Below, piece by piece: positions 17,885-42,363 of a stretch of DNA of 64,000 nucleotides. The stretch covers positions 1,178,001-1,242,000 of the forward strand of contig NZ_JACHIU010000001.1 in NCBI RefSeq assembly GCF_014207705.1, written 5' to 3'. This stretch comes from Sphaerisporangium rubeum. GTDB taxonomy: Bacteria > Actinomycetota > Actinomycetes > Streptosporangiales > Streptosporangiaceae. Both the position numbers and the translations under genes were made by a program. Under the pieces are notes generated by a model. The model ran no database searches, had not been told where the DNA came from, and was given only the letters and a program-made list of their open reading frames with translations. How positions within the stretch are numbered: position 1 is the first letter of the stretch; each line of letters starts with the position of its first letter.

Positions 17885-17896
17885 CATGAGAAAAGA

Positions 17897-17922: not shown

Positions 17923-17937
17923 CCACGTCTCTTCGGG

Positions 17938-18954: not shown

Positions 18955-19020
18955 TGTCGATCCCTCTCAACCTCTCGGGCAACAACACGCGAAGCGCAAC
19001 GCCGACGCTGTCAACCCCCC

Positions 19021-19036
19021 GTTTCCCACCTGTTGC
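19021..19036 (-). promoter_or_regulatory. candidate GlnR-type box upstream of glnII
   Basis: On the glnII strand the bases read GCAAC-n6-GAAAC. This matches the GlnR a-site/b-site layout GTnAC-n6-GAAAC with one mismatch. It lies 67 bp upstream of the GTG start. A TTGACA hexamer sits between it and the gene. This is tentative. Confidence 0.3.
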
Positions 19037-19247
19037 CCATGTATGAACACCATGTGAAATGGTCCCAGGACCCTACGTGTCCTCCCTCACAAGTCCCCCC
19101 AGCTAAACCCCCGACTTCCCCATCCCTTCCCCACCCGGCGTACCGACCCCCAACCCAGTTTTCGGACCCCACCGTCCGCAACCCGCCGATCCAGCGACCC
19201 ACACCCGGCGACCACCCACCCCGGCCACAACCTGCGTCTCATTTCCG

Positions 19248-19267
19248 AACTCTGCTATGGCAGAGTT
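19248..19267. promoter_or_regulatory. perfect inverted repeat upstream of thioesterase
   Basis: AACTCTGC-TATG-GCAGAGTT, with 8-bp perfect arms, lies 38 bp upstream of the thioesterase ATG (19306). It is an AT-rich spot in very GC-rich surroundings and fits a dimeric repressor operator overlapping the promoter; the regulator is not adjacent. A leader hairpin is the alternative. Confidence 0.5.
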
Positions 19268-19305
19268 GCCGTGAGCACCTCACCCCGACCCAGGAGGACC
19301 CCCGC

Positions 19306-19821
19306 ATGTCCACCCCGGAACAACTCGACGCACCCTCCCGCCACCGCCAGTACACCTGGAACGACCCCATGATCACCGCGACGGCCGGCCGCGACCTCGA
19401 CGGCATGACCACACTCAAAGCGATCATCGACGGCACCGTCCCCCCACCCCCCATAGCCATAGCCCTCGGCTTCGACCTGGAAGAAGTGACCCCCGGAAAC
19501 GCCGTCTTCGCCTTCACCCCCGCCGAGTACCACTACAACCCCATCGGCTCCGTACACGGCGGCGTCTTCGCCACCCTCCTCGACTCGGCCGCCGGCTGCG
19601 CCGTCCACTCGATGCTCCCGGCAGGCGTCGCCTACACCACTCTCGACCTCATCGTGAAGTACCTCCGTCCCATAACCACCGGGACCGGCCGGGTGACGGC
19701 GACCGGCACCGTCACCCACCTCGGCACCCGCACAGCTCTCGCGGAAGCGAGACTTCAGGACAGGACGGGCCGCCTACTGGCCACCGCCACCAGCAGCTGC
19801 CTCGTCATCCGCCCCACCTGA
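19306..19821 (+). CDS. PaaI-family hotdog thioesterase
   Basis: 171-aa hotdog-fold protein. The catalytic motif is NPIGSVHGGVFATLLDSAAG and the substrate-channel strand is TTLDLIVKYLRPITTG, both typical of PaaI/acyl-CoA thioesterases. It likely hydrolyses a CoA ester; the substrate is unknown. Start ATG 19306 has AGGAGG 9 nt upstream. Its last 48 bp overlap the convergent SDR gene on the opposite strand. Confidence 0.9.
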   Translation: MSTPEQLDAPSRHRQYTWNDPMITATAGRDLDGMTTLKAIIDGTVPPPPIAIALGFDLEEVTPGNAVFAFTPAEYHYNPIGSVHGGVFATLLDSAAGCAVHSMLPAGVAYTTLDLIVKYLRPITTGTGRVTATGTVTHLGTRTALAEARLQDRTGRLLATATSSCLVIRPT

Positions 19822-20724
19822 CGCGAAGTAGTGCCCCTTCTCCAGATCGTCGATGAACCCGATCTGCGTGGGCCGCCACCCCAGCATCTCCCGCGTCACC
19901 GCACTGGACGCCGCGCCGTCCGTCCCGAGGAACCCGGCCAGCCACCCGAAATGCCCCGCCGCGTCCTCAGGCCGTACCGCCACCACCGGCACCCCGAGAT
20001 GCCGTCCGATCACCTCGGCGACCTCCCGCAACGCCACCCCTTCGTCGGCGATCGCGTGCAGCACCGACCCGGCGGGAGCCTTCTCCACCGCGAGCCGGAA
20101 CAGAGAAGCCGCGTCGTCCCGATGCACGAACGGCCACCGCTGCGTCCCGTCCCCGATGTACCCCGACACCCCTTTCTCCCGAGCGATCCCGATCAGCACC
20201 GCGAGGAACCCGGGATCCCCCTCACCATGCACGATCGGCAGCCGCACGACCGACGACCGCACCCCACGTGACGCGTACCCGAGCGCCACCCGCGCCGTCG
20301 CGATCCGTCCGTGCACCCCGCCATTCCCCTGCTCCACCGGCCAGTCCGCCTCCGTCGCGACCCGTCCCGGCGCGATCCCCCCGACCCCGGAGGCGATGAC
20401 GAACGGCCTCCCGGACCCGGCGAGCGCCTCCCCGAACGTCTCGACGGCCACTCGATCCGCGTCCGCGGCCCCCTGGTAGTCCCCGCTGAACGCGATGTCG
20501 TGCTTGAACGCGAGGTGGATCACCCCGTCCGCCGCCTCGGCCTCGCGCCGCAACGTACCGAGGTCGTCGAGGTCTCCCCGAACCACCCGGACCCCGGCCG
20601 CGTCGAGCGCCGCCGCCGAAGCGTCCGACCGCGCCAGCCCCACGACCTCGTGGCCGGCCTCGATCAGTTCGGGAACGAGCGCCGACCCGCACCACCCGGA
20701 AGCACCGGTGACGAGAACACGCAT
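19774..20724 (-). CDS. NAD(P)-dependent extended SDR / sugar epimerase-like protein
   Basis: 316-aa Rossmann-fold protein with VLVTGASGWCGSALVPELIEAGH (GxxGxxG) at the N-terminus, GDLDDLG, and a late WPFVHRDDAASLF segment. The YxxxK of active SDRs is not obvious: the corresponding region reads GRIATARVAL. It may be an atypical reductase. Start ATG 20724 has GGAGGGG 6-7 nt upstream. An inverted-repeat operator overlaps its promoter (20747-20765). The 3' end overlaps the thioesterase convergently. Confidence 0.82.
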   Translation of the reverse strand: MRVLVTGASGWCGSALVPELIEAGHEVVGLARSDASAAALDAAGVRVVRGDLDDLGTLRREAEAADGVIHLAFKHDIAFSGDYQGAADADRVAVETFGEALAGSGRPFVIASGVGGIAPGRVATEADWPVEQGNGGVHGRIATARVALGYASRGVRSSVVRLPIVHGEGDPGFLAVLIGIAREKGVSGYIGDGTQRWPFVHRDDAASLFRLAVEKAPAGSVLHAIADEGVALREVAEVIGRHLGVPVVAVRPEDAAGHFGWLAGFLGTDGAASSAVTREMLGWRPTQIGFIDDLEKGHYFASGGADDEAAAGGGGQ

Positions 20725-30226: not shown

Positions 30227-30847
30227 TCATTCCTCCCGCACATCAGGCGGTGGAAGGCTCTCGATCCGCCGGGGAAAGTACCGCAAGATGTCCTCCCCGC
30301 ATCGCCAGAGAGCCGCGACCTCCCGCCTGCAGACCTCGATGAGCTCCCGGTCGACGAACCTGCGAGCCCCAGAGAGCACCCCCGCGCTGTACTGAATGAC
30401 GTACATCACGGGTGAAGCCACCCGCTCCCCAAGGATCAGCACCTCAGGCAGCTCCTCCCGCGCCTCCAGATGAGCGACGGCCGCCGTAGGAAGCACCGTG
30501 ATCTGCTCCCCGAGCTCGGCCCAGATCGTCAGCACATGCAGCTCCCACTGCAAGTAAGCCGTAAGCGGCTCACAAACAAACCGAACCCGCCGCTGCACGA
30601 TCCCCCGCCGATCCAGTGCTCTCTGGTGCTCCACTCTCCCGGCCCGCATCCCCTCCGCAAGCCGAAGAGCCCCATCCCAGTCCCCGCCACGCATCGCCAC
30701 CCAACTAGGCGACCCCGGCTCCCGAAACGTCAGCCCCCTCTCCAACCTCCACGTCACATCGGCGACCCAGAAGTGCCGCCGAAAGTCCTCCTTGTACTCC
30801 TCCAGCCCCAACACCGGCGCCGGTAGCGACCCAAGCTCCTCAAGCAT
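30227..30847 (-). CDS. DUF6879-like protein
   Basis: 206 aa. The sequence YKEDFRRHFWVADVTWRLERGLTFREPGSPSWVA, then RRVRFVCEPLTAYLQWELHV and the C-terminal RFVDRELIEVCRREVAALW, matches the actinobacterial family I know as DUF6879, usually found beside XRE-DUF5753/DUF397 genes. ATG 30847 overlaps the end of the upstream ATPase gene by 8 bp, so the two are co-translated. Function unknown, probably part of the WhiJ-like regulatory locus. Confidence 0.75.
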   Translation of the reverse strand: MLEELGSLPAPVLGLEEYKEDFRRHFWVADVTWRLERGLTFREPGSPSWVAMRGGDWDGALRLAEGMRAGRVEHQRALDRRGIVQRRVRFVCEPLTAYLQWELHVLTIWAELGEQITVLPTAAVAHLEAREELPEVLILGERVASPVMYVIQYSAGVLSGARRFVDRELIEVCRREVAALWRCGEDILRYFPRRIESLPPPDVREE

Positions 30848-31340
30848 CTGTCCCCTCCGTCCCCGCCGCGCAGGCCAACGGCAGCGACCCCTCCCGAGGC
30901 AACAGACACCGAACCTGCTTGCCGATCGGCGTCACCGCCACGTCCCACCCAGGAGTAAGCGCATCCAGCAACCAGAGCCCCCGCCCCGACTCGACCTCCG
31001 GATCATCCGCACTCGTCCCGGCTCGAACCGGCAGCCGAACCGGATCCGGATCATGAACCCTGACCCAGACCCCCGCACCGCCGACCTCCACCTCCACGAT
31101 CACCGGAGCCCAGTGCCCACAGGCCCGCACCGCGTTCCCCACCAACTCCGACGCGACCAGCCGCGCCGACTCCACCGTCTCACCGTCGACGCCGAGCACG
31201 GCAAGGACCTCTTTGATCATCTTCCGAACGGCACTCAGGTTTTCCGCACAGACATTCATGTGTACCGCGAAACCGTTTGTCCGAGTTGATGGATAGAAGC
31301 CCAACCTGGCGAACGATGCGTATTCTTCTATATTGGACAT
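30840..31340 (-). CDS. single-domain ATP-binding protein (HATPase_c_2), WhiJ-module ATPase (third copy)
   Basis: GHKL ATPase with N-box RLVASELVGNAVRACG, D-box RVHDPDPVR and G2 region VESGRGLWLLDALTPGWD. Start taken at ATG 31340 (MSNIEEY) after GGGGTGAAA; ATG 31358 would add six residues. It is divergent from an XRE-DUF5753 gene and coupled to a DUF6879 gene. As with the other copies, an anti-sigma-like role is inferred from the fold. Confidence 0.82.
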   Translation of the reverse strand: MSNIEEYASFARLGFYPSTRTNGFAVHMNVCAENLSAVRKMIKEVLAVLGVDGETVESARLVASELVGNAVRACGHWAPVIVEVEVGGAGVWVRVHDPDPVRLPVRAGTSADDPEVESGRGLWLLDALTPGWDVAVTPIGKQVRCLLPREGSLPLACAAGTEGTDA

Positions 31341-31545
31341 TTTCACCCCGTTCCTCATCTCCGACCCTGTGGTGACTGGAATCCGACAATTTACTCAAAG
31401 TATCTGTAGTCTGACCCTGAGTCATTGTCACTGGTAGGGATGATGGAGGGTTTCCAAGTTTTGGCGCAAGGTTTCTACCCAACTCCTCGCCAGCTTTTTT
31501 TGAAAGGCATCGCTTTGCCTATGGTGGAGTGCCAGACTTGCGCTC

Positions 31546-32415
31546 ATGCCGAACGCGCCTGTGATCCCGACCGTCCGACGCCGCCGCTTGGGTTCAACTC
31601 TGAGAATGTTGCGAAATAAAGCGGGAATGACACTGGACGAGGCTTCTGTCGCTATGGGGTGGAAGGCGCCAAAAATGTCCAAAATCGAGAATGCCTTCGC
31701 GACCATCCGCTCCGCAGAGGTGACCACGCTGCTACAGGTGTACGGCGTCACCGACCCCGAGATCTACAGCGCACTGGAGGCACTCGCCAAGGACGCCGGC
31801 AAGAAGGGTTGGTGGCAGACGTACAGCGGAGTGGTCGCCCCCGCGTACGCCGACTACATCTCCCTTGAGTCCGACGCCGAGAGCATCAAGGTCTTCGCCC
31901 CACTCCTCATCCCCGGTCTCCTCCAGACAGCCGCCTACGCGCGCGAGACCATCTCCGGCATCACCATGACCCGAACCCCCGAGGAGATAGCAGCCCTGGC
32001 GGAACTCCGCTTGGCCCGACAGTCCGTACTGACCCGCCCCAGTGGTCCACTGAAGCTCTGGGCCGTCATCTCAGAAGCCGTCCTCCACCAGCGATTCGCC
32101 GTACGCCCGTCCACAATGCGCGACCAACTACGCAGACTGACCGACTGCGCAGACCTCCCCAACGTCACCATCCAGGTCATGCCTTTGGACGCCACCCCAC
32201 ACCCCGGCTACGCAGGAGGCTTCAGCGTCGTCGGCTTCCCCTCAGCCCTCCCCGACGTAGTGACGCTGGAAAACCTCCTGGGCCTCGCCTATCTTGAAGA
32301 GGACTCGGAGGTGAACACCTTTACCGACGCCTTCAGTCGAATCGTCGCCGCCGCCTCTCCGGTAGACGACTCCAAGGCCCTGATCGCCCGCATGGAGAAA
32401 GGCACCAGGCAGTGA
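31546..32415 (+). CDS. XRE-family regulator with DUF5753 (WhiJ-like, third copy)
   Basis: 289 aa. The HTH lies around residues 15-65 (LRNKAGMTLDEASVAMGWKAP...KIENAFATI). DUF5753 follows, with IKVFAPLLIPGLLQTAAYA, RLARQSVLTR and IQVMPLDATPHPGYAGGF. The 3' end overlaps the DUF397 gene by 4 bp. No strong Shine-Dalgarno precedes ATG 31546. This locus directly abuts the restriction-modification island. Confidence 0.88.
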   Translation: MPNAPVIPTVRRRRLGSTLRMLRNKAGMTLDEASVAMGWKAPKMSKIENAFATIRSAEVTTLLQVYGVTDPEIYSALEALAKDAGKKGWWQTYSGVVAPAYADYISLESDAESIKVFAPLLIPGLLQTAAYARETISGITMTRTPEEIAALAELRLARQSVLTRPSGPLKLWAVISEAVLHQRFAVRPSTMRDQLRRLTDCADLPNVTIQVMPLDATPHPGYAGGFSVVGFPSALPDVVTLENLLGLAYLEEDSEVNTFTDAFSRIVAAASPVDDSKALIARMEKGTRQ

Positions 32416-32633
32416 CCCCTAATTGCCCCAGCCAAGACACCTGCGACCTGGCCACACTGAGGTGGCGCAAGTCCTCCGCCAGCGCGGCCGAAGGTGACTG
32501 CGTGGAAATCGCTGATATCCCGTCCGGCGGGAAGGCGATCCGTGACTCCAAGCACTTGGGTACGATGCCGCTGAGGCTCACAGATGCCGTATGGTCGGCC
32601 TTCCGGCAAGCCGTACGGAGCGGCGAACTCTGA
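32412..32633 (+). CDS. DUF397 protein
   Basis: 73 aa, starting at GTG 32412 within the stop of the XRE gene (GTGA). It has the DUF397 blocks LRWRKSSASAAEGDCVEIAD, KAIRDSKHLG and TDAVWSAFRQAV. It is probably the partner of the WhiJ-like regulator. A short N-terminal extension (TPNCPSQDTC) carries two cysteines. Confidence 0.88.
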   Translation: MTPNCPSQDTCDLATLRWRKSSASAAEGDCVEIADIPSGGKAIRDSKHLGTMPLRLTDAVWSAFRQAVRSGEL

Positions 32634-32685
32634 GCTTCTCCATGCTCCGATGGCGTGCGCTCAGTGCCGCTGCGGTGCGGATTGT

Positions 32686-33849
32686 CTAAGGGCCGCTGTG
32701 GAGACGGCCGCCTGCGAGCGGTCGGTCTTGCTCCCGATAGTGAACCATTGATGGCTCGGCGTCGTGGATCGGGCCCGAACACTTCCGGATGTCCCAGGTC
32801 TCAAGGCTCTGCAGCAGATAGTCGTCCGGAGCGTCCCAACCGAATGCAGCACAAAGGATGTGCATTGCCAATCTAGGAGGCACAGCATTTCCGATCTGCT
32901 GACCCACGTCCCGCCCGGACCAGGGGTAGTTCACTGGGAAAGTCTGCAGGCGACCGGCTTCGGAGAGGGAGAACCGCGGCAGCTCGATGTCCCTTGCAGA
33001 CACGACACGGTTACGAAAGATCTTTCCTGTAACAGTGGCAGACGGTTCCCAGGAGGCCCTACGACCGCGAGCTTTGGGATCCCCGCCGGTTCCGTAGTTC
33101 GAGATCACGAAAAAGTCCGACGGTCGATCGAGCGCGTCAGCCATTCTTCTCCACGGTTGGAGTGCTCGATCCCCTGCCTCGCGTGAGATGCCTCTGCGGT
33201 AACGCCGATGTGTAGGCGATGGCAGAGACACTTTTTCGTCGCCTAGACGAGCGATGAGCACTGCCCGTCTGCGTGTCTGAGGTACGCCGTATTCCTCAGT
33301 GCGGAGGATTGCGCAGTCCACGCCATAGCCTTCGTGCTGAAGAGCAGCCGCGTACGCCTCCCATACAGGGAGCGCCGCCGGAACCTGCTCAAGGATTATT
33401 GCGTCATACGGGGTGGCGTTCTCTACGTCGATCGCTGCGAGCGCCCAGCGAAGAGGCTCCAGGACCATGCGCGTTCGCTCGTCCCTAAGCCTGGAAAGAT
33501 CCTTTACGATCTCCGTCCGTTCCTCCCGGGCAACCATGCGTTTGATGAAGTGCTGGACCTCGTCAAGAGCTTTGCGCCCGGTCCCCCGGCCGGCGACGGT
33601 GAAGGTCTGACACGGTGGTCCTCCCGCAAGCACGTTCGCCCTGGGGAAGTTCAGGGGGCCATAGTCACGTACGTCTGCTTCCACCGTGACCAGACCAGCT
33701 GCTCGCCGCGTCTGACATGCCGAGGCATCCCATTCCAGACCCACAGTCGCGACACCGAGCTTCTCCGCCGCCACGTCGAGTCCGCCAGGCCCAGCGAACA
33801 AGTCGACCATCTGGGCAGGACGCCAATCGATCTTAGGGCGGTGTGTCAC
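32686..33849 (-). CDS. DNA (cytosine-5) methyltransferase of the Z1/MORC restriction-modification island
   Basis: 387 aa. The C5-methyltransferase motifs in order are: I, MVDLFAGPGGLDVAAEKLG; IV, AGGPPCQTFTVAG with the catalytic Cys; VI, AIILEQVPA, where most C5 enzymes have ENV (here EQV); VIII, QTRRRAVLIA; and X, GQQIGNAVPPRLA. The short target-recognition stretch lies between VIII and IX. GTG 33849 is the only upstream start. It is divergent from vsr (34026) and probably protects host DNA from the operon at 34499-41543. Base composition is visibly less GC-rich than the flanks. Confidence 0.92.
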   Translation of the reverse strand: MTHRPKIDWRPAQMVDLFAGPGGLDVAAEKLGVATVGLEWDASACQTRRAAGLVTVEADVRDYGPLNFPRANVLAGGPPCQTFTVAGRGTGRKALDEVQHFIKRMVAREERTEIVKDLSRLRDERTRMVLEPLRWALAAIDVENATPYDAIILEQVPAALPVWEAYAAALQHEGYGVDCAILRTEEYGVPQTRRRAVLIARLGDEKVSLPSPTHRRYRRGISREAGDRALQPWRRMADALDRPSDFFVISNYGTGGDPKARGRRASWEPSATVTGKIFRNRVVSARDIELPRFSLSEAGRLQTFPVNYPWSGRDVGQQIGNAVPPRLAMHILCAAFGWDAPDDYLLQSLETWDIRKCSGPIHDAEPSMVHYREQDRPLAGGRLHSGP

Positions 33850-34025
33850 CCGTGAGATGCTGCCACAGTTTTCGTTGTCTGAAGTCCGGTGGGGTGAGGA
33901 GATCAGGCGTATCCATGGACAGACGAAGCATCAGTTCATGACGTGCACCTTCCCAGCGAGAGGTCGGCGAACAGATGATCACGATCTCGGTGTCAGGGAC
34001 AGGGGACAGGGGATAGCGTTCTGGT

Positions 34026-34454
34026 GTGGCAACCATGCCTTCTCCCAGTTCGCCCGGTGTGTCGGCGCGGATGAGCAAGCAGCGTCGCAGGGACACCGGG
34101 CCAGAGGTCTCGATTCGCAAACTTCTGCATGCCAGCGGTCTGCGGTACCGGGTGGCCTGGTCCATACCAGGTATGAAGCGCCGCTCGATCGACATCGCTT
34201 TCACGCGAGCTAAGGTGGCGATCTTCGTGGACGGGTGTTTTTGGCACTCCTGCCCGGAGCACGCCACTCGTCCGGCTGTGAACGATACATGGTGGTCTGA
34301 GAAGTTGGCGAAGAACGTGGCGCGAGACATGGCCACGAACGAGCATCTCAAGCAGGCAGGGTGGCGAGTCATCCGGATCTGGGAGCACGAGGACCCGTCC
34401 CGAGCGGTCGAGCGCATCGTCGAAGCGGTCACACGTGCACAGGCCGAGTGTTGA
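34026..34454 (+). CDS. vsr: very short patch repair (Vsr) mismatch endonuclease
   Basis: 142 aa. RMSKQRRRDTGPEVSIRKLLH, the catalytic region KRRSIDIAFTRAKVAIFVDGCFWHSCPEH, and the late VIRIWEHEDP are characteristic. Vsr nicks beside T:G mismatches produced by deamination of 5-methylcytosine and is usually encoded next to a C5 methyltransferase, as here (33849). Start GTG 34026 was used; ATG 34035 is an alternative, and neither has a strong Shine-Dalgarno. It is transcribed opposite to the rest of the island. Confidence 0.93.
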   Translation: MATMPSPSSPGVSARMSKQRRRDTGPEVSIRKLLHASGLRYRVAWSIPGMKRRSIDIAFTRAKVAIFVDGCFWHSCPEHATRPAVNDTWWSEKLAKNVARDMATNEHLKQAGWRVIRIWEHEDPSRAVERIVEAVTRAQAEC

Positions 34455-34498
34455 CTCGTCCTGCGATGACGTCCAGCGTTTGCCCGGTCCGAGGTGCC

Positions 34499-35251
34499 CT
34501 ACGGTTCGAGGCCGCGTTCTCTGGAATCCCCAGACCGTCCGGTCAGCCGCGTGACCGTCTCGGACGTCAATGCTCGACAGATGTCTCGCACCTGCTGGTC
34601 GGAGAGGGCTCGTACGTCCAGGAACGCCAAGTACCTGCGCAGGCGAGCTGTGACATCTCGGATCACCGGTCTACGAGAGACATTCGTGGCGAGTTCGGTG
34701 ACAGCTCCGGCCATCTCCCGTACCAGACGAGGGTCACCGCCAATGCTGCGGCGTTCGAGAAGCTGGTTGAGGTCGCTCTCGCTGAGCGCAGCCAGGATGT
34801 GCTCGTGGCCGGCGAAGACAACGGCCTGCCACCACAGCCGAGCCCAGGTGTGCCGCGTGAGATCGGTGGCGATCCACCGCTCCTTGTTGTTCGGTCCGAA
34901 GCGCCACATGGTCACATGCGGCAGGGCCACGAGGGAGAGGAAGGACCAGAGGTCCCGGTTGCCGGCTTCCGCCCATGACAGATTTAAGTGAGCGCGGATC
35001 ACCTTGGCGGCGTCACGATCAAAGGCCACCCGCGCGTCGCTTCCGGCAGCTTCCGGGAAACGGTATTCACGGGCCACTGTCGAAACCGCATCGATCAGTT
35101 CCCGTACGTGCTTCGGTGCGACACGGCCCCCGACGGGTGCCCATGTCTGTTCCGGATGACTCTCTCGTGGCTCGCGGAGTCGCCCGGCGTAGATATCGGC
35201 ATACAGGGTTGCGCCGACAACGGCGGGGAGATGGGGCCACAGTTCGCTCAT
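34499..35251 (-). CDS. DUF6339-like protein, last gene of the Z1/MORC operon
   Basis: 250 aa, helix-rich. Landmarks are LWPHLPAVVGATLYADIYAGRLREP, WAEAGNRDLWSFLSLVALPHVTMWRF, WWQAVVFAG and LARR-type basic repeats near the C-terminus. I recall this as the DUF6339 family associated with Z1-type islands (memory, not searched). ATG 35251 overlaps the preceding gene's stop by 4 bp. There is no obvious nuclease motif. It is possibly a structural or DNA-binding subunit; function unknown. Confidence 0.7.
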   Translation of the reverse strand: MSELWPHLPAVVGATLYADIYAGRLREPRESHPEQTWAPVGGRVAPKHVRELIDAVSTVAREYRFPEAAGSDARVAFDRDAAKVIRAHLNLSWAEAGNRDLWSFLSLVALPHVTMWRFGPNNKERWIATDLTRHTWARLWWQAVVFAGHEHILAALSESDLNQLLERRSIGGDPRLVREMAGAVTELATNVSRRPVIRDVTARLRRYLAFLDVRALSDQQVRDICRALTSETVTRLTGRSGDSRERGLEP

Positions 35252-36135
35252 TGGAAGATGCGCCCCCTGCCGAGGCTCCGCACGGCACCCGAGACCTGGG
35301 TCCTGAAGTCCGCGAGGTCCACCGCCGACGGTGGGGCGACGACATGCAATGGTGATGCGGCGATGGTCCTCGCAAGGACGTCCCCGACGCTGTCGGGTGG
35401 CCAGTCCTCGCGTTCCTCCAGTTCGGTGCGGAGGTGCAGGGCGAGTTCCAGCAGTAATGCGGCGACTCCGGCCTGAAGTTCGTCGAGCAGAGCCTGCTGT
35501 CGTCTGTCCTTGACCCCTCGGGACACGGCTGTCCGTAACTCACGGTCGCGTTTGTTGATGAGCACGCGGAACACACCGTAGAAAGGTGCAGTCAGGTCCG
35601 TGCTCGTCTCCAGATGCCAACTGGCGGTGGGGGAGAGGCGTGTGTGCGAGAAGTCGATCTCGTGAACCGGGAACATGGAGGACATGCTCTCCAGCACCAT
35701 TCGCTGGATGTGCTCTGCGAGCACCGAGCCCGGTACGGTCGCGACGCCGACGTGTCGCTCGACGGAGTAGCGGACAAGGCTGATGGTGCTGCGGAGGGAG
35801 AGGGTTCCGGCCAGGCGTTCCCCGGCGAGTATCGTGTCGATCGATGCCATGCCGTTCGGGTCGAATTTCACTGCTGGCGCGGCCTCGGTCATATCGGTGG
35901 TCGAACTGGTCCAAGAGACCGTCAGCGCGATGTCCGTGAGATCGAGTCCTGTCTCCTGTACGAAGCGTGCAACATCGATCCGTACATGTCGTGCTGCGCG
36001 TAGATCTGTGCCTGGATCCCATCCCTCGATGGCGTCCGGCAAAGGTCTCCACTCCCCTGCGTCGAGCAGGAACCATGGTTCCCACATGATTGTGCCCGGA
36101 CGTGGTACCAAGTAAGGGCGGACGTCAGCCGGCAT
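35248..36135 (-). CDS. unassigned 295-aa protein of the Z1/MORC operon
   Basis: I do not recognise a family. It begins with an Asp/Trp-rich segment (YLVPRPGTIMWEPWFLLDAGEWRPLP). Beta-like segments follow, including GLDLTDIALTVSWTSSTTD and LAGTLSLRSTISLVRY. Late in the chain comes a helical part (RRQQALLDELQAGVAALLLELALHLRTELEER). ATG 36135 overlaps the MORC ATPase gene by 11 bp, and the stop overlaps the DUF6339-like gene by 4 bp, so it is translated as part of the operon. The overlaps argue for a stoichiometric component of the complex. Confidence 0.75.
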   Translation of the reverse strand: MPADVRPYLVPRPGTIMWEPWFLLDAGEWRPLPDAIEGWDPGTDLRAARHVRIDVARFVQETGLDLTDIALTVSWTSSTTDMTEAAPAVKFDPNGMASIDTILAGERLAGTLSLRSTISLVRYSVERHVGVATVPGSVLAEHIQRMVLESMSSMFPVHEIDFSHTRLSPTASWHLETSTDLTAPFYGVFRVLINKRDRELRTAVSRGVKDRRQQALLDELQAGVAALLLELALHLRTELEEREDWPPDSVGDVLARTIAASPLHVVAPPSAVDLADFRTQVSGAVRSLGRGRIFQ

Positions 36136-38002
36136 CGGACGTCTCCTGAATCACCTTGAAGCGCACGACGGCGTCGGGCACGTGTGTGGCGTAGACGTAC
36201 CAGTCCGACTCCTGACCCGCGGGTATCGTGACGGTCCTTCCGCGAGCGACGGTTCCGGCGGCGGATTGCCACTGCATTATCTGTGGCACTGGGGCACCGA
36301 GCGGTGGTTCACTTTCGCGGCCGCCCCCTTCCACCACGACCTCAACGTCAGCGGCAAGGACTCTGGCGGTCTCCGCCGCAGGAACCTTCACCATGGCGAC
36401 CAGGTATGGCTTTCCTGCGTGAACCAGCAATTCCGGATTGCCGTGCAACCGAGCCCTTCCTCCCCGTCGCGCTGACGAACCACCATGCTCGCCGCCGCCA
36501 CCGCGGTTGGTGTTGGTCGCTCCAGGCGCTCCACCGATGGCACCGTCCCTTGACTCGCCGTCCTTGGCTCCCAGGTGCGACCGCGCGGGAACTATGCCGG
36601 CCAGCAGTACCGAAAGCTGCCCCAGTCCCTGGCCGCCTGAGCCGCCGGACTGAGGGCCGAGTCCGAGTCGTTCGTCCAGTTGTTTCTGTACAAAGGTGCG
36701 TGCTCCCTGGACGACTCCTCGTGCGGCTCCGGTCAGCCCCTTGGAGATCCAGTCGTCGTGCGTGGGTGGTTCTGCCAAAGCGAACAGTGCGTCGGCGTCC
36801 TCGGATGTCTTGAACACCCCGGCGTAGGCGAGGCGAGGGTCGGTATGAGGAGGACCGGCGAGGTAGTCGACCACGAGTTCGGCCACGCGCATGCGTGCGA
36901 CGTGGTGGGACGGTCCCTCGAACGGCTTCGCCGCGTCGATCAGAAGACGTGTGGTCGCACTGTCGGCGGAGCCCAAGGCCATGGCGAAGTTTCCGGCGTG
37001 CTTCGGGCGGACGGTACGTGAGAAGGGTTCGCCGTTACCTGCCCTGACCTCCCGCAGAGCATCGACGAAGGGTGCCAGCTCGTCGAAGCTCTGGGGATCG
37101 GGAACAGGGACAGCGGAACCGTTGACACCCACGACGAAGCGCATGTGACGGCCGTGCTGGTCCGGGACCATCTTCGGCCACAGATTCCAGAGGATGGAAG
37201 ACGCGATGAAGGTCGCGGCCTCCTCGGCGGTGCGCTCACGCACGTCGGGCTCGGATCCGACCGTGCCACCAAGGTCGGCTGCCAGGATGACGACGTCCGT
37301 TCCGGTTCTGCCGTCGCCGAACCCCAACAGTCCCAGGCGATGAGAAATCGTGTCGGCCTGTGCGTCCAGGATCGGGTCTGGTATTTCATCGTCGGCGATG
37401 GTGCCCCACCAATGGCGGCCGGTGAAACGACGCTTGCCGAGGTACCAACTGTGGCCGAGAGCTGCACCCATCAGCCGGCGGGCATCCGGGCCGCCCGCCG
37501 CGGTGTGGGTGTCCACGAGGATCGTGCCGGCCCGGCTGAGACTGTAGAAGATGCCCTTCCCGAATCCGTACGTCCCTCCACCGAACACGTGGTCACTGGG
37601 CTCTCCGACGTTCCGGAGGAACTGCACGAAATCCGGTGTCTCGTCGTCGTGGGCTCGCACACTGGCGCGGAGAGGACCACCCAGTCCCCTGGTGTTCCGG
37701 TCGGAGACCACCAACACGACGGCATCCCGGCGCAGCGCCTTGGAGAGATCGATGTTCGACTCGCTGTGCGGCCCCGGCAACAGCAGCTCTCGCAAGGTGT
37801 CGGCGTGATCGCCGAGCACACGGACATCCACGCCGAACTCGACCACGCCCTCGGGCAGGCGCGCGTCCCAGCTGTTCTGTGCCGCCTCCCGAACCAGGAC
37901 GGTCAACGGGTCGAGGGCCGGGCGTCCTAATTGCTTGACGATGCCCTCGGCCGCGGCGGAGCCCTCCGGTGCGAACGGTTGTGACCACCAGCGAGGGTTC
38001 AA
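36125..38002 (-). CDS. MORC/MutL-like GHKL ATPase of the restriction-modification island
   Basis: 625 aa. The N-terminal GHKL ATPase has the N-box LTVLVREAAQNSWDAR, the Asp box VLVVSDRNTRGLGG and the Gly-rich lid FGGGTYGFGKGIFYSLS. An S5-like transducer region follows, including NLWPKMVPDQHGRHMRFVVG. A Gly/Arg-rich linker around residues 510-550 precedes a C-terminal beta domain. The start TTG 38002 was chosen because AGGAGG lies 7 nt upstream and TTGA overlaps the stop of the upstream gene; extending the frame upstream would cover that gene. MORC-type ATPases in R-M islands were described by Iyer, Abhiman and Aravind (2008); they are thought to act as ATP-driven clamps. Confidence 0.85.
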   Translation of the reverse strand: MNPRWWSQPFAPEGSAAAEGIVKQLGRPALDPLTVLVREAAQNSWDARLPEGVVEFGVDVRVLGDHADTLRELLLPGPHSESNIDLSKALRRDAVVLVVSDRNTRGLGGPLRASVRAHDDETPDFVQFLRNVGEPSDHVFGGGTYGFGKGIFYSLSRAGTILVDTHTAAGGPDARRLMGAALGHSWYLGKRRFTGRHWWGTIADDEIPDPILDAQADTISHRLGLLGFGDGRTGTDVVILAADLGGTVGSEPDVRERTAEEAATFIASSILWNLWPKMVPDQHGRHMRFVVGVNGSAVPVPDPQSFDELAPFVDALREVRAGNGEPFSRTVRPKHAGNFAMALGSADSATTRLLIDAAKPFEGPSHHVARMRVAELVVDYLAGPPHTDPRLAYAGVFKTSEDADALFALAEPPTHDDWISKGLTGAARGVVQGARTFVQKQLDERLGLGPQSGGSGGQGLGQLSVLLAGIVPARSHLGAKDGESRDGAIGGAPGATNTNRGGGGEHGGSSARRGGRARLHGNPELLVHAGKPYLVAMVKVPAAETARVLAADVEVVVEGGGRESEPPLGAPVPQIMQWQSAAGTVARGRTVTIPAGQESDWYVYATHVPDAVVRFKVIQETSDAG

Positions 38003-38988
38003 CGGACCACCTCCTCGGCAATCTCGGCCAGCGACGCCCCGGAGGTGAACGGAAGCATGGCGGTGAGATCGATCTGATAATCGATGTCCATGACACCGTC
38101 CGGCAGTGAGCCCGTGACGAGGGATGACGGGACGAGACGAGGAATGCCCGGGCCGATCATGATCCTGTGTGTCTCCTCGACTGTGAACGAGTCCAGGTCG
38201 GGACGGTCCGGATACTCCGTCCATCCTGCCGCAGAGAGTCGTGCACGGAGGGTGGACCGCGACACCACTGTGCTGCGGAGTTGTTCGACGAGATCACTCA
38301 CGGTCCGGCCGTCCGGGTCTTCTGTGACACGCAGAAGAAGGAGGTCCAGTGGTCGTCCACCGTGCGTGTTCAGCTGCTCCAGACCGTGGACGACGATGCT
38401 GTCGCTCGTCGGGCTCAGTCCTTTCACCTCGAGACAGCGTAGGACGCCCTCGAAGTCATGTGGTTCGCCCAGTGGTCCCCGCCACTTGTCCACCGGGAAC
38501 GTGCGGTCCGCCTCGACGAGGGACGAGAGCACGGTAAGTTCCGCGAACAGGCCGATCTTGGCCTGACGGGACAGTCCGCGCAGCAGGCCGTTCCGGAACA
38601 GACGCCGCCATCGTGCGATGGTGGCCACGGCCACCGTCGCCGGTCGTGGTGCGCCGGTCATGGCCTCCAGCACGTCGGACACGACTTCGTCGAATTCCGG
38701 GAAGAGGTCCGACTCGGCGCACGACACGTCGACGTACGCGACAGCAGGACCGCCGAAGCTCAACCTGCGGACCACCGTCCCGAGCACCGCGGTTCTGGGG
38801 TCGACGGACACGTCCTCGTCACCCGCCGGGACCAGCAGATGACGGGCACCCTTGCTGTCGATCGCCACGCGGCAAGGTTCCCCATGGCACGCCATCCCGA
38901 GCGGGAACGAAGTCAGTTCCTTCCCACTTGGCCGGCTCAGGACCGCCCAGGCGCGCTCCAACACGGTCGGCCGGAAGTTGTCCGTCAC
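37999..38988 (-). CDS. PD-(D/E)XK nuclease-like protein (DUF4420 type)
   Basis: 329 aa. A restriction-endonuclease-like core is visible: GLFAELTVLSSLVEA supplies the first Glu, GEPHDFEGV the Asp, and LRCLEVKGLSP the E-x-K. This matches the PD-(D/E)XK proteins known as DUF4420 that accompany Z1 and MORC genes. GTG 38988 overlaps the Z1 stop by 4 bp, and the stop overlaps the MORC start. It is the probable DNA-cleaving subunit. Confidence 0.85.
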   Translation of the reverse strand: MTDNFRPTVLERAWAVLSRPSGKELTSFPLGMACHGEPCRVAIDSKGARHLLVPAGDEDVSVDPRTAVLGTVVRRLSFGGPAVAYVDVSCAESDLFPEFDEVVSDVLEAMTGAPRPATVAVATIARWRRLFRNGLLRGLSRQAKIGLFAELTVLSSLVEADRTFPVDKWRGPLGEPHDFEGVLRCLEVKGLSPTSDSIVVHGLEQLNTHGGRPLDLLLLRVTEDPDGRTVSDLVEQLRSTVVSRSTLRARLSAAGWTEYPDRPDLDSFTVEETHRIMIGPGIPRLVPSSLVTGSLPDGVMDIDYQIDLTAMLPFTSGASLAEIAEEVVR

Positions 38989-41543
38989 GCCGTGTCCTCG
39001 GTGTCGACGCCGAGGGCCTCGTCGACGTTCTCGCTCTCGACATCGGTGAGATCCACGGCGACGTGGGTCGCCTGGATGTACTTCGTCTCGACATCCCCGG
39101 GGAAGGTGATGCCAAGGCCGACCACCGGCTGTACCGCATCCAGCGCAGTACGCGGTGGGTGTGCGATCTGGGTGCTCGGCTGCGGGGTGGCGGGTTCACT
39201 CGTCGCGTCGATCAGGTACAGGACGATCAGTCCACGGTCATGACAGACCGGATGCTTGTTGCGGAGCGTGACGAGTTCGCTCTCGGTCTTCGTTCTGGCC
39301 TGTGCGGCCGTCAGACCGAGATCCAGCGCACGGTCCTGCTTGCTCATGAGCGTCTTGATGTCGGCGCGTTCGGTGTTGCCGTCATTCAATCGAGATCGGA
39401 TCGAGTACTTGAGGTCCAGGCCGCCCAGTCTCGCTTCTGCGCCTTCTCCCTTGACGACAGCGACGGACCACATCACCAAGCTCGGTGGATCGCTGGTGAG
39501 CTGATGGTCGATGTACTTGACCATAAGCGACGGTTCCAGATCCGGTGAATCTTCGTGCACCTGGTACCGAGAGAGAAAGGTCTTCACGAGTGACACAGGG
39601 ACTTCCCGGATCAGCCGTGCGGCGCCTAGGTCTTCGACCTGGCCATGCCGTACGCCTTCCTGGACCAAATTCTCTGCGGCCTGACGGTTCCTGTCCAGCC
39701 ATTCGACGTCCCGGTGCCTGAAGTACCGGGTCTGCAACCGACGTCCGGCGTAGGAGATGTAGGTCGGTTGAGCTGCGCCCATCTTGGCAGTGATTCGCAA
39801 TGACGGGTGTGTCCGGATCCGCACCGCCACGTCGGTCGGAGTCAGGTTCTCCCTCTGATAGCGGTCGATGTCGTCGCGCATCTCATGTTCGACGGTGGCG
39901 AGGTGGCGGAACGCAGCAGCCAGGCTCGGGGTCATCCAGATCCTTGGAAGATCTTCGTACCCGGTTCGGTACCCGAACCAGCGACCCATCTGGAGCAAGG
40001 TGTCGTAGGCGGTCGCCCCTCGGACGAAGAAACTGACAACGAGCCCTTCGAGTGTCAACCCGCGGGAGAGGGTGTTCCCACCCACGGCGATGGCCACCAC
40101 GGAGTCCTTGGAGTAGTCGAGTCGATCCTGACTGCGGTAGTTGTCGAGCACTATGCGCGTGGTGGCGATGACCTCACTTAGGTGCGGGAGTACGTCGTCG
40201 AAGGTGTTTTGCGGCCGGTCGAATTCCTCGGCCGGGACCCGTGACGACTCCTTCTCCCAAAGGTTCCGCCACTCGTCGAGAATCTCGGAGCGGCCGGAGG
40301 CGAGGCCAGCGAGGGCCTGCTGCTGGAGGTCATGCAAGGGTGCACGGTAGCTTTCGTGGACCGCGATCTTGACGGACGTGTGGATGAGCATCGTGCTGTG
40401 GTCGCTGTCTCCGCGTGCCCGTCGGGCTGCTGTAGCCAGCCAGAACCAGTGGACGGCCGTTACCAGCTCATGGATCATTGTAGGGATAAACCCGTCCACA
40501 GACTCTTTGCTACCAGGCCGCAGCAAAGGGACGTCGCTTTCGGTCACCAGTCGAACCATGTCGTAGCCGTCAGGTGGACCCTGTTCGTCGGTCGTCTCCC
40601 ATTCGACCGCATCGCGACCGAAGATCTTCTCAGGGCCGAAGTAGCCGTCCGGACGCGGAAGGTTGAGGATGAACGACTTCGGATACAGGTCGGTCTGCGT
40701 GGGATCGATGAAGACGTTAGCGAAAGGCGTCGCGGTGTATCCGATATAGGTGCAACGCGGCATCAGGCTCAGAAGCTTTCTGATGAGCGGGTTGATCCGT
40801 CCCGTGGCCACTGAGGCCTGATCCGCCTCATCATCGATGATCAGAACCGGCGAGGAAGCGAGTGCGTTCCGACTGTTAGGTGTGCCCAACCACTTGATGA
40901 GCTTGTTCAGAACGGCCGAGTTCTTCTTGACGACCGCCAGGACCGTCTTCTCCGCACTGAGTGCGGCGGAGGCCTCGTGGGTCTGCACGACGAAGTCACG
41001 GGACTCGCTTGTCAGCGTTATCCAACGGTCGGGGTTGAGGTCCTTTAGATACTGGTCCAGCCGCACCTGGGTCTGGCGACGTAGCCCGTTGTGGATGCCG
41101 GAAAGCACGATGACGAGGCGGTAACGCACATCCGCTAGTTTCGCGATGACGGCGGTGAAGTTGGTGGTCTTCCCGCTCTGCACGTATCCCACCACGAGAC
41201 CCTTGGAGTCCCATGTGGAACGGTCCGGCCTTGGGGTATGGGCGACGACAGTACTGGAGGAGTGATCCACTGAGTCGATTCGATCGCCTGGCCATTCTTC
41301 GTTCTTGAACCGGTCCTTCAGCGCCAACCAGTAGCGGTCGGACTCTCCCGGGCCGCTGTACCAGTCGTCCGAACCGGCGGTGATGATCGGCGGGCCGCCG
41401 GCTTGTACCTTCGCCATGTCGGCCTCGAACTGACGCCGGAACTTGTCGATGTCAGCTTGTGGCAACGAGTCCGAGAAACTGGTCACGGCCGCCTCGACGC
41501 CGTGACGTCTGGCCCAGTCCGCGAAGACGGTGTACAGGCCCAA
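38985..41543 (-). CDS. Z1-domain helicase-like ATPase of the restriction-modification island
   Basis: 852 aa. A helicase-type P-loop, GLVVGYVQSGKTTNFTAVIA, lies near residue 118. Walker B/DEAD-like is VLIIDDEADQAS, followed by CTYIGYTATPFANVF (motif III-like TAT). The Z1 domain follows with AIAVGGNTLSRGLTLEGL and LLQMGRWFGYRTGYEDL, an arginine-finger-like block. The H subunit of the CglI restriction enzyme is a DEAD-Z1 motor (established). The start is TTG 41543, after GGGTGAT; a stop lies just upstream, so no longer frame exists. It is the first gene of the five-gene operon. Confidence 0.9.
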   Translation of the reverse strand: MGLYTVFADWARRHGVEAAVTSFSDSLPQADIDKFRRQFEADMAKVQAGGPPIITAGSDDWYSGPGESDRYWLALKDRFKNEEWPGDRIDSVDHSSSTVVAHTPRPDRSTWDSKGLVVGYVQSGKTTNFTAVIAKLADVRYRLVIVLSGIHNGLRRQTQVRLDQYLKDLNPDRWITLTSESRDFVVQTHEASAALSAEKTVLAVVKKNSAVLNKLIKWLGTPNSRNALASSPVLIIDDEADQASVATGRINPLIRKLLSLMPRCTYIGYTATPFANVFIDPTQTDLYPKSFILNLPRPDGYFGPEKIFGRDAVEWETTDEQGPPDGYDMVRLVTESDVPLLRPGSKESVDGFIPTMIHELVTAVHWFWLATAARRARGDSDHSTMLIHTSVKIAVHESYRAPLHDLQQQALAGLASGRSEILDEWRNLWEKESSRVPAEEFDRPQNTFDDVLPHLSEVIATTRIVLDNYRSQDRLDYSKDSVVAIAVGGNTLSRGLTLEGLVVSFFVRGATAYDTLLQMGRWFGYRTGYEDLPRIWMTPSLAAAFRHLATVEHEMRDDIDRYQRENLTPTDVAVRIRTHPSLRITAKMGAAQPTYISYAGRRLQTRYFRHRDVEWLDRNRQAAENLVQEGVRHGQVEDLGAARLIREVPVSLVKTFLSRYQVHEDSPDLEPSLMVKYIDHQLTSDPPSLVMWSVAVVKGEGAEARLGGLDLKYSIRSRLNDGNTERADIKTLMSKQDRALDLGLTAAQARTKTESELVTLRNKHPVCHDRGLIVLYLIDATSEPATPQPSTQIAHPPRTALDAVQPVVGLGITFPGDVETKYIQATHVAVDLTDVESENVDEALGVDTEDTA

Positions 41544-41901
41544 GATTTATCACCCATTCCCATGCCTAGAGGGAGAAACTTAGCCGAGTAGAGCAAAGTC
41601 GACCACAAAGTGCCGACGGAATGTGTCTCGAATGATGGGGTTGATGGTGCAACATCCTGTATTGGTGCCGAGCTCAGGCACCTGCTGACGACCAGAGCGT
41701 GCATGCGAGCGGTCAAGGTACGGTTCGTCGATGGGTATGCCCCGATGCGCACCAGGTCTCTTGAGCGGTCGTGAGTGCATGAGGCAGGTCATGTAGTTGG
41801 CCGGAGAGTGTCCTGCCCATCGGGACGGGGATCGGGAGCGTCCGTTGGGGATGGAGTTGAGTGACGCCGTGGAGACACAACGGTCGTCGTAGTGTGGGGG
41901 C
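41544..41901. other. 358-bp intergenic region at the right edge of the island
   Basis: This must contain the promoter of the five-gene Z1 operon (minus strand). A 118-codon minus-strand open frame runs through it (41580-41936) into the next gene's start, but it has no motif or ribosome-binding site that I recognise and may be a degraded remnant. No attachment-site repeat is visible. Confidence 0.4.
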
Positions 41902-42363
41902 ATGAGTCCGAAGATTGCGACGAACCACATGGTCACCCGGGAAGAGCTGCTCGACTTCGTTCGTGAGCGGCATCAGGCGATCCTGCTGACCTTGCGGAGG
42001 GATGGGATGCCGCAGGGGTCTCCCGTCACCTGTGGGGTGGATGGGGAGGGACGGATCGTGGTGTCGTCATACCCGGAGCGGGCCAAGGTGGTCAATGCTC
42101 GGCGGGAGCCGCGGGTGAGTGTGGTTGTGCTGTCGGATGACTTTGGTGGGGCCTGGGTGCAGGTGGATGGGATGGCTGAGGTGCTTGATATGCCGGAGGC
42201 TTTGGAGCCGTTGGTTGAGTACTTTCGGGTGATCTCGGGGGAGCATCCGGATTGGGACGACTATCGGGCTGCCATGGTGCGGCAGGGGAAGTCGTTGATT
42301 CGGGTTACGCCTACTCGTTGGGGGCCGGTGGCTACTGGGGGGTTTCCAGCTCGGTTGGGGTAG
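41902..42363 (+). CDS. PPOX-class F420/FMN-dependent oxidoreductase
   Basis: 153-aa split-barrel flavin/deazaflavin-binding protein. AILLTLRRDGMPQGSPVTCGVD, IVVSSYPERAKVVNARREPRVSVVV and the C-terminal LIRVTPTRWGPVATGGFP are typical of PPOX-class F420-dependent proteins. Start ATG 41902 lies in a G-rich stretch (GTGGGGGC). It converges with the TetR gene (30-bp gap). The substrate is unknown. Confidence 0.9.
   Translation: MSPKIATNHMVTREELLDFVRERHQAILLTLRRDGMPQGSPVTCGVDGEGRIVVSSYPERAKVVNARREPRVSVVVLSDDFGGAWVQVDGMAEVLDMPEALEPLVEYFRVISGEHPDWDDYRAAMVRQGKSLIRVTPTRWGPVATGGFPARLG

What the first reader, a model, noticed from the sequence alone, without database searches (positions are those of the whole stretch)
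32686..41543. Seven-gene Z1/MORC restriction-modification or defence island
A C5 methyltransferase and Vsr sit beside five overlapping genes on one strand: Z1 helicase-like ATPase, PD-(D/E)XK protein, MORC/GHKL ATPase, an unassigned protein and a DUF6339-like protein. Overlaps are 4, 4, 11 and 4 bp. The Z1 domain is known from the H subunit of CglI, and MORC-type ATPases in R-M islands were described by Iyer, Abhiman and Aravind (2008). Here two ATPases, a nuclease fold and two proteins without known function form one unit. The composition is less GC-rich than the flanks. I infer a methylation-guided, ATP-driven anti-phage system.
Basis: partly seen in the sequence, partly recalled or inferred. 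Interest (0 to 1): 0.85.

Follow-up and report, generated by a model that had tools for sequence, protein, structure and literature searches.

The report
Predicted C5-methylation-guided phage defence operon
A five-gene unit with two ATPases and a nuclease, linked to an exchangeable DNA methyltransferase and a repair enzyme, is probably an antivirus defence system of a kind already predicted but, as far as I found, untested; comparison with relatives suggests that the methyltransferase tells the unit which DNA to attack.

Summary
Five overlapping minus-strand genes (Z1 ATPase, DUF4420 nuclease, GHKL ATPase, an unassigned protein, a DUF6339-like protein; overlaps 4, 4, 11, 4 bp) lie beside a C5 methyltransferase and an opposite-strand Vsr. 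The GHKL protein carries the paraMORC2 signature, not the MORC one. The unit recurs: 79 of the 80 nearest Z1 loci hold paraMORC2, the unassigned protein and DUF6339; 73 of these 79 have a C5 methyltransferase within 4 kb. By its unassigned protein it is patchy (10 of 200 family genomes; 1 of 11 in the genus). The kind is known: Iyer 2008 described such operons; Miller 2022 predicted a 'Type I' defence system of Z1, PD-(D/E)XK, C5 methyltransferase and three more genes. It is not MZA (no AIPR in the genome). New here: the five core proteins co-evolve (r 0.94-0.98), while the methyltransferase follows them poorly (r 0.19-0.40 by subset) and is exchanged with no matching change found in the core; DUF6339 is fused to a methyltransferase in 24 of 79 loci. 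I infer that the methyltransferase is the interchangeable reader and DUF6339 its dock, as with PglX in BREX. Target sequences and phage activity are untested.

The parts
38985..41543 (-). Z1-domain SF2 ATPase (852 aa), first gene of the operon; Walker A GYVQSGKT, DEAD box, motif VI DTLLQMGRWFG
   Evidence: PF10593 E 5.3e-67; NCBIfam MzaC 359.6 bits against a cut-off of 1500; Walker A lysine, DEAD-box D-E and motif VI arginine each 71 of 71
37999..38988 (-). DUF4420 PD-(D/E)XK nuclease (329 aa), predicted active site E150-D178-E187-x-K189
   Evidence: PF14390 E 3.7e-43; also a sub-threshold match to DrmE_C, 18.6 bits against 27; E150, D178, E187, K189 each 71 of 71
36125..38002 (-). paraMORC2-type GHKL ATPase (625 aa from an inferred TTG start; the mechanical ORF runs to 38224)
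   Evidence: no Pfam hit in the window protein or in 42 aligned members; N-box E, N, D 41 of 42 (one gap), G1 and G2 residues and ExxxH 42 of 42, MORC motif 0 of 42
35248..36135 (-). unassigned protein 'UNK' (295 aa): beta-rich N-terminal part, helical C-terminal part in the model
   Evidence: no hit in Pfam, PADLOC or NCBIfam at E 0.05; AlphaFold2 pLDDT 89.4, pTM 0.64; Foldseek nothing at E 0.001 or better, weak matches to beta-sandwich proteins
34499..35251 (-). DUF6339-like protein (250 aa), all-helical in the model; proposed dock for the methyltransferase
   Evidence: PF19866 22.3 bits, cut-off 23.2; seven of eight relatives scanned are over the cut-off, L013 has no hit; pLDDT 92.6, no fold match; fused to a C5 methyltransferase in 24 of 79 loci (confirmed by Pfam in the two of them scanned)
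34026..34454 (+). Vsr mismatch endonuclease (142 aa), opposite strand
   Evidence: TIGR00632 116.5 bits, cut-off 97.85; PF03852 59.4 bits
32686..33849 (-). C5-cytosine DNA methyltransferase (387 aa); motifs I, IV (PPCQ), VI (EQV), VIII and X present
   Evidence: PF00145 E 2e-28; PADLOC MTase_II 2.6e-86; motifs by pattern (patterns recalled); solved relatives M.HaeIII and M.HhaI
41544..41901 (.). intergenic region between Z1 and the divergent F420-dependent oxidoreductase gene; presumed operon promoter, not tested
   Evidence: gene positions; inference

Best explanation
An ATP-dependent restriction-type defence unit whose sequence specificity comes from the partner C5 methyltransferase. The methyltransferase marks its sites in host DNA. 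On incoming DNA the same methyltransferase, docked through DUF6339, meets unmarked sites and signals to the core: paraMORC2 closes as a GHKL clamp, the Z1 ATPase moves along DNA, and DUF4420 cuts. The unassigned protein is a scaffold or sensor. Vsr repairs T:G mismatches left by deaminated 5-methylcytosine at host sites. Shown here: gene content, intact motifs in Z1, DUF4420, paraMORC2 and the methyltransferase, co-inheritance of the five core proteins, exchange of the methyltransferase on a near-constant core, no core segment found that follows the exchange in the clade tested, and DUF6339-methyltransferase fusions.
For: Core as a unit: 79 of 80 Z1 loci with tight junctions; 15 of 15 UNK places carry paraMORC2 and DUF6339 beside it; core distances r 0.938-0.976 over 71 sets (linked genes are expected to correlate, the contrast with the methyltransferase is what counts). 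Methyltransferase belongs: within 4 kb in 73 of 79 loci, fused to DUF6339 in 24, each of these with a second one nearby. Exchange: Z1 89% identical but methyltransferase 28-29% in L001 and L010, against 76-78% in L003 and L004; in 39 sets with one methyltransferase r is 0.194 with Z1, while Z1-UNK is 0.968. No tracking: 0 or 1 family-linked fixed differences per core protein, inside the range of the nine other splits; at equal Z1 identity, sharing a methyltransferase family changes core identity by -0.011 to +0.022. Motor precedent: the DEAD-Z1 ATPase of CglI (abstract; passages). Reader precedent: PglX in BREX (titles and abstract starts). Patchy distribution.
Against: No functional test. Target sequences of the methyltransferase families are unknown and could coincide, although the segments between motifs VIII and IX differ (101 aa in the window, 203 aa in L010; 34% in a forced alignment; the script found both motifs in 3 of 6 proteins and cut L011 at a second motif-like site). 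The methyltransferase still correlates with the core above chance (0 of 999 permutations reach it), reaches r 0.40 in the 53 sets that also have Vsr, and pairs sharing a family are closer in the core overall (Z1 0.858 against 0.789). The largest local core difference linked to family is at the C-terminal end of DUF6339 (window of 25 from column 221, +0.07), small but just where a dock would be. Over the 53 sets Vsr follows Z1 (0.54) better than the methyltransferase (0.41), so joint exchange is clear only in the window's clade. DUF4420 is missing between Z1 and paraMORC2 in 6 of 79 loci and from an Agrobacterium plasmid copy, which also shows no methyltransferase or Vsr in the 20 kb fetched. 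L017, L018 and L019 show no methyltransferase in the fetched DNA.
Confidence: 0.42

Rival explanations
1. Classical restriction-modification: a core protein (DUF4420 or the unassigned protein) recognises the same site as the methyltransferase and cuts it when unmethylated, with Z1 and paraMORC2 powering the cut, as the B3 domain of R.CglI reads the site for CglI.
For: Gene content matches the R-M operons of Iyer 2008; CglI precedent with its own recognition domain.
Against: No core protein was found to carry a segment that changes with the methyltransferase family, which an independent reader of the same site would need; no B3 or PLD domain found by Pfam in the seven proteins.
Confidence: 0.2
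2. The core senses something other than the methylated sequence (DNA ends, replication forks, a phage protein, or general absence or presence of 5-methylcytosine); methyltransferase and Vsr are a loosely linked guard that only marks self.
For: The core seems indifferent to which methyltransferase is present; the unassigned protein gives weak matches to beta-sandwich folds, among them the AGS-C domain of a Pycsar cyclase (E 2.8e-3); some loci lack a methyltransferase in the fetched DNA.
Against: DUF6339-methyltransferase fusion in 24 of 79 loci and linkage in 73 of 79 argue for direct contact.
Confidence: 0.25
3. Modification-dependent (type IV-like) restriction or abortive infection triggered by foreign methylation.
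For: The related Type II systems of Miller 2022 include an AIPR abortive-infection protein.
Against: AIPR is absent from the own genome; a resident C5 methyltransferase would make host DNA a target (inference).
Confidence: 0.06
4. Not defence: a DNA repair, recombination or gene-regulation unit.
For: Vsr is a repair enzyme; one relative fuses a paraMORC2-like protein to a sigma-70 factor.
Against: Patchy distribution, a variable gap that holds DISARM genes in a genus relative, exchange of the methyltransferase, kinship of Z1 and DUF4420 to MZA.
Confidence: 0.07

Closest known systems
'Type I' putative defence system of Miller et al. 2022 (PMC9523054)
   Same: Z1 + PD-(D/E)XK + C5 methyltransferase plus three further genes, associated with DNA repair endonucleases (section 11 read; passages)
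   Different: The three further genes are not named in the text that I read and Figure 5 is not held, so the identity is inferred from gene content; that section does not mention methyltransferase exchange or fusion
MZA (mzaABCDE; Gao et al. 2020, not held; known and family models)
   Same: Z1 (MzaC) and DUF4420 (MzaD) are homologous
   Different: No AIPR in the genome; no sigma factor among the window proteins scanned; Z1 and DUF4420 far below NCBIfam's MZA cut-offs; the GHKL of one AIPR-containing locus (L083) does not match the paraMORC2 profile
MORC/paraMORC R-M operons of Iyer, Abhiman and Aravind 2008 (PMC2292703)
   Same: SF2 helicase with DThhQXuRhFG motif, RE-fold protein with E-D-ExK, cytosine methylase, Vsr, paraMORC2 with ExxxH (two of four parts of the main section read)
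   Different: The parts that I read do not describe DUF6339 or the unassigned protein; Figure 2 itself is not held
PADLOC candidate PDC-M33
   Same: PDC-M33A matches the GHKL part and PDC-M33C the DUF6339 part of relatives L131 and L141; PDC-M33A also matches L142 and L082
   Different: The window GHKL matches only weakly (E 2.1e-4, no stretch passing) and the window DUF6339 not at all at E 0.05
CglI / NgoAVII (PMC4267653, PMC5737866)
   Same: C5 methyltransferase plus a DEAD-Z1 ATPase
   Different: Two-protein enzyme with a PLD-B3 endonuclease that reads the site itself; three genes, without GHKL, DUF4420 or DUF6339
BREX
   Same: Proposed logic: methyltransferase as specificity factor (titles and abstract starts)
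   Different: No BREX protein among the PADLOC hits shown for eight window proteins (the methyltransferase's list is cut at 25 of 54); here cytosine C5 and other core proteins

Membership tests
paraMORC2 (Iyer 2008) | GHKL ATP-binding boxes N, G1, G2 | tested here: met
   E39, N43, D46 41 of 42 (one gap); D101, T104, G106, G109 42 of 42; G142, G143, G146, G148 42 of 42
[quoted passage not shown]
   E411 and H415 42 of 42; that they lie in an S5 fold was not tested
paraMORC2 (Iyer 2008) | S5 fold after the GHKL domain | not tested
MORC proper | GhXhhpXXRhl motif in S5 | tested here: not met
   0 of 42 by pattern
MZA (mzaABCDE) | Z1 protein MzaC | tested here: inconclusive
   E 3e-107 but 359.6 bits against a cut-off of 1500
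MZA (mzaABCDE) | PD-(D/E)XK protein MzaD | tested here: inconclusive
   71.6 bits against 420
MZA (mzaABCDE) | AIPR protein | tested here: not met
   PF10592: no match in the own genome
MZA (mzaABCDE) | sigma factor MzaA | tested here: not met
   no sigma-70 or MzaA hit in the window proteins scanned, a part of the window's genes; the rest of the genome was not searched for it
Miller 2022 Type I | Z1, PD-(D/E)XK and C5 methyltransferase core | tested here: met
Miller 2022 Type I | three additional genes and association with repair endonucleases | tested here: met
   three additional core genes; Vsr within 4 kb in 57 of 79 loci
Miller 2022 Type I | sequence identity of the three additional genes | not testable with these tools
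   Figure 5 and the supplementary table are not available
PDC-M33 (PADLOC) | A and C components | tested here: inconclusive
   window: A weak (2.1e-4), C none; relatives L131 and L141: A 1.8e-21 and 7.8e-20, C 3.3e-10 and 2.8e-6
CglI-type | PLD-B3 R-protein beside the Z1 ATPase | tested here: not met
   no such domain in the seven proteins by Pfam
DISARM | DrmA and DrmB | tested here: not met
   no DrmA or DrmB among the PADLOC hits shown for eight window proteins; the methyltransferase gives DrmMII hits, but MTase_II scores higher; DUF4420 gives a sub-threshold DrmE_C match

The most novel reading that the evidence does not exclude
A C5-cytosine defence system in which the methyltransferase is an exchangeable specificity subunit: one near-constant Z1-DUF4420-paraMORC2-UNK-DUF6339 machine accepts methyltransferases of at least three families, docked through DUF6339 and sometimes fused to it, so that target specificity changes by exchanging one gene (in the window's clade together with Vsr) without change to the machine.
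Probability: 0.38. Interest if true: 0.75.

Novelty: new member of a known kind. Interest (0 to 1): 0.52.

Why it matters
The gene set was predicted as a defence system in 2022; in what I could read it has not been tested, and for two of its proteins I found no fold partner. The comparison turns a list of domains into a testable claim: specificity sits in an exchangeable C5 methyltransferase. If true, it would add a cytosine-C5 counterpart to the BREX logic, give DUF6339 a role, and give prokaryotic paraMORC ATPases, relatives of the eukaryotic MORC chromatin proteins, an assayable job.

Tried and rejected
Solved structures by sequence: no hit for the GHKL and unassigned profiles or for Z1; 11 weak hits for DUF6339, best E 0.041 to a Fis-family regulator, judged chance. 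Foldseek: no match at E 0.001 or better for the unassigned protein (best 1.1e-3) or DUF6339 (best 0.65). MZA membership: rejected. MORC proper: rejected. Homology of the unassigned protein to the middle protein of the Z1-less relatives: not supported, although those two resemble each other at 36%. One methyltransferase-Vsr cassette across all loci: not supported by the overall correlations. A replacement nuclease in the DUF4420-less locus L018: of four flanking proteins scanned, three have other functions and one has no hit. HEPN-like motif in DUF6339: looked at by eye only. Literature: no paper for DUF6339, PDC-M33 or Z1 domain + methyltransferase + defense system + Streptomyces from 2020; the library is partial.

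Limits: the 80 loci are the best of 465 Z1 hits, so the conservation figures are conditional on closeness to this Z1 (43-89% identity). The UNK-first searches do not depend on that choice, but their profile was built from these loci. Gene starts in relatives were set by a rule in a script. One gene call was incomplete in each of L008, L025 and L069; L071 holds Z1 alone. 70 of 80 loci plus the window entered: those nine-minus-L071 loci without a full five-gene call, L071, and L015 (its DUF4420 lies elsewhere) were left out. In some searches the nearest non-fused methyltransferase stood for the locus; some loci have two (L002 holds one 27% and one 61% identical to the window's), so 43 of 287 overstates exchange somewhat; one search repeats the correlation on 39 sets with one. 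The clade test uses six sets. Structure alignments held the window plus 65 (A4) and 39 (A5) of 78 relatives. Of nine gap loci (L129-L137) only L131 was scanned with Pfam and PADLOC; the others only with my seven profiles.
Full report
What is there. The seven genes have open, uninterrupted frames. On the minus strand, in transcription order, lie a Z1-domain SF2 ATPase (38985-41543), a DUF4420 PD-(D/E)XK protein (37999-38988), a GHKL ATPase (36125-38002, inferred TTG start), an unassigned 295-aa protein (35248-36135) and a DUF6339-like protein (34499-35251), overlapping by 4, 4, 11 and 4 bp. Downstream follow Vsr (34026-34454, plus strand) and a C5 methyltransferase (32686-33849, minus strand). 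DUF6339 is just under Pfam's cut-off in the window but over it in seven of eight relatives scanned. The flanks are ordinary: an XRE/DUF5753 regulator and HATPase and DUF6879 genes on one side, an F420-dependent oxidoreductase and a TetR regulator on the other.

Catalytic state. In 71 aligned sets (70 loci and the window) the Z1 Walker A lysine, the DEAD-box D-E and the motif VI arginine are invariant; in DUF4420, E150, D178, E187 and K189 are each 71 of 71, the E-D-ExK pattern that Iyer et al. reported for such operons. The methyltransferase has motifs I, IV, VI, VIII and X by pattern. The GHKL protein has no Pfam hit in any of 42 members and its profile finds no solved relative. It keeps the N, G1 and G2 boxes, has the paraMORC2 ExxxH motif in 42 of 42, and the MORC motif in 0 of 42 (motif definitions). 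It is therefore paraMORC2 by signature, not MORC.

A conserved unit. A Z1 search of the genome collection kept the best 80 of 465 hits, all from actinobacterial genera by their titles and my knowledge of the names. paraMORC2, UNK and DUF6339 are in 79 of 80, DUF4420 in 74 of 80. Neighbouring genes lie within 60 bp in 72 of 73, 72 of 73, 77 of 78 and 77 of 77 measurable cases for the four junctions. Starting from UNK instead, 10 of 200 genomes of the family (own included) and 6 of 396 of the phylum (own included) have it; in the genus only the own genome of 11. All 15 places (own included) have paraMORC2 and DUF6339 beside UNK, and the three distant ones that I extended hold all seven genes. 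Outside the phylum, an Agrobacterium plasmid holds Z1-paraMORC2-UNK-DUF6339 without DUF4420, and without methyltransferase or Vsr in the 20 kb fetched.

Methyltransferase and Vsr. A C5 methyltransferase lies within 4 kb in 73 of 79 loci, and Vsr in 57 of 79. In 24 loci the methyltransferase is fused to DUF6339, each time with a second methyltransferase nearby (Pfam check on two of the 24, L029 and L062, where it is C-terminal). Other DUF6339 copies are longer too: 7 of 78 are 430-560 aa and 2 of 78 are 346-355 aa. Of these nine, six were scanned: DUF3320 in L075 and weakly in L035, an HTH in L063, no extra domain in L013, L023 and L034.

Exchange on a near-constant core. Pairwise distances of the five core proteins correlate at 0.938-0.976 over 71 sets; the nearest non-fused methyltransferase correlates at 0.30-0.34 over 68. 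In the 39 sets with one methyltransferase, Z1-UNK is 0.968 and Z1-methyltransferase 0.194, a value that 0 of 999 permutations reach. In the 53 sets that also have Vsr it is 0.40. Of 287 pairs with Z1 at least 75% identical, 43 have nearest methyltransferases under 45% identical. In the window's clade, L001 and L010 have Z1 89% but methyltransferase 28-29% and Vsr 51-52% identical to the window's, while L003 and L004 have Z1 84-88%, methyltransferase 76-78% and Vsr 84-85%. Over all 53 sets, however, Vsr follows Z1 (0.54) better than the methyltransferase (0.41).

Does the core follow? For {window, L003, L004} against {L001, L010, L011}, the five core proteins are about equally similar within and between groups (Z1 0.879 and 0.878; UNK 0.826 and 0.820; DUF6339 0.811 and 0.807) and carry 0 or 1 group-fixed differences each, inside the range of the nine other 3:3 splits; the largest local difference, +0.07, lies at the C-terminal end of DUF6339. 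Over 68 pairs with Z1 at least 70% identical, pairs that share a methyltransferase family are closer overall (Z1 0.858 against 0.789), but at equal Z1 identity sharing a family changes core identity by only -0.011 to +0.022. Thus no core protein looks like a reader that must match the methyltransferase's site. The segments that should hold the recognition domain differ in length (101 and 203 aa) and hardly align (both motifs found in 3 of 6 proteins). That the target sequences differ is likely but not shown.

Mechanism. The CglI papers (passages of PMC4267653; abstract of PMC5737866) report that a DEAD-Z1 ATPase drives ATP-dependent cutting and propose translocation, but there a B3 domain in the nuclease reads the site. 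Here no such domain was found, and the exchange test speaks against a core reader. BREX offers the other logic: a title and abstract starts listed present PglX as methyltransferase and specificity factor. I therefore favour a methyltransferase-read, ATP-dependent restriction unit with DUF6339 as dock. The clamp role of the GHKL protein is inferred from the looping role that Iyer et al. propose. VcSduA, a paraMORC3-like Shedu protein, shows that a GHKL ATPase and a PD-(D/E)XK nuclease can together give phage defence (passages of PMC12137116). The role of Vsr in correcting mismatches from deaminated 5-methylcytosine is stated in PMC8011034 (passages).

Unassigned protein and DUF6339. The AlphaFold2 model of the unassigned protein (pLDDT 89.4, pTM 0.64) is a beta-rich N-terminal part and a helical C-terminal part; Foldseek gives only weak matches, many to beta-sandwich proteins, among them a Pycsar AGS-C domain. 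DUF6339 is a confident all-helical model (pLDDT 92.6, pTM 0.86) without a match but with invariant residues (R133, H134, R138, W140, W141, R167 each 71 of 71).

Relatives without Z1. In genus relative G182 the flanks of this locus are about 51 kb apart, and that gap holds DISARM DrmA and DrmB, an HTH-paraMORC2-like protein, a middle protein, DUF6339, two methyltransferase genes and Vsr. Another genome has a sigma-70-paraMORC2-like fusion (PADLOC MzaA, 5.6e-37) with a middle protein, DUF6339, methyltransferase reading frames and Vsr. Both match PADLOC's PDC-M33A and PDC-M33C. So paraMORC2, a middle protein and DUF6339 look like a module that occurs with and without the Z1-DUF4420 module; two Z1-less cases were seen.

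Novelty. The operon kind was described in 2008 (two of four parts of the main section read), and the six-gene 'Type I' was predicted in 2022 (section 11 read). The identity with Type I rests on gene content, since I could not see the figure or the table. I found no paper for DUF6339 or PDC-M33. As far as these searches go, the exchange test and the fusion are not in print.

Noticed in passing
L131 (G182:C2:109300-129299), 1216-6319 and 13891-19987: DISARM DrmA and DrmB near an HTH-paraMORC2-like protein, a middle protein, DUF6339 and methyltransferase genes, in the variable gap that corresponds to the window's locus; Vsr follows in L132
   Followed up: partly
L141:12031-15627 (G370): paraMORC2-like protein fused to a sigma-70 factor that resembles MzaA, followed by a middle protein and DUF6339, with methyltransferase reading frames and Vsr nearby but no Z1 in the 20 kb
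   Followed up: partly
window 32415-41902 and the corresponding gaps in G162, G191, G182, G148, G081: Left- and right-flank matches lie about 37-95 kb apart on one contig in five genus relatives; here 9.5 kb (12.5 kb to the right-hand gene that G162 and G191 match). The G191 gap (L130) holds a C5 methyltransferase and Vsr without the core, a 10-kb piece of the G081 gap (L137) likewise; the G148 gap (L134-L136) shows none of the seven genes. A probable defence hot spot
   Followed up: partly
L015-L018, L037, L051: Z1-paraMORC2-UNK-DUF6339 without DUF4420 between Z1 and paraMORC2; in L015 and L051 a DUF4420 lies elsewhere in the locus
   Followed up: partly
L071: A second Z1 locus in Streptomyces aureus NRRL B-1941 in which tblastn finds none of the other six genes
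   Followed up: no
window 5209-6781 and 30840-32415: Two places where an HATPase_c_2 gene lies beside an XRE/DUF5753 regulator
   Followed up: no
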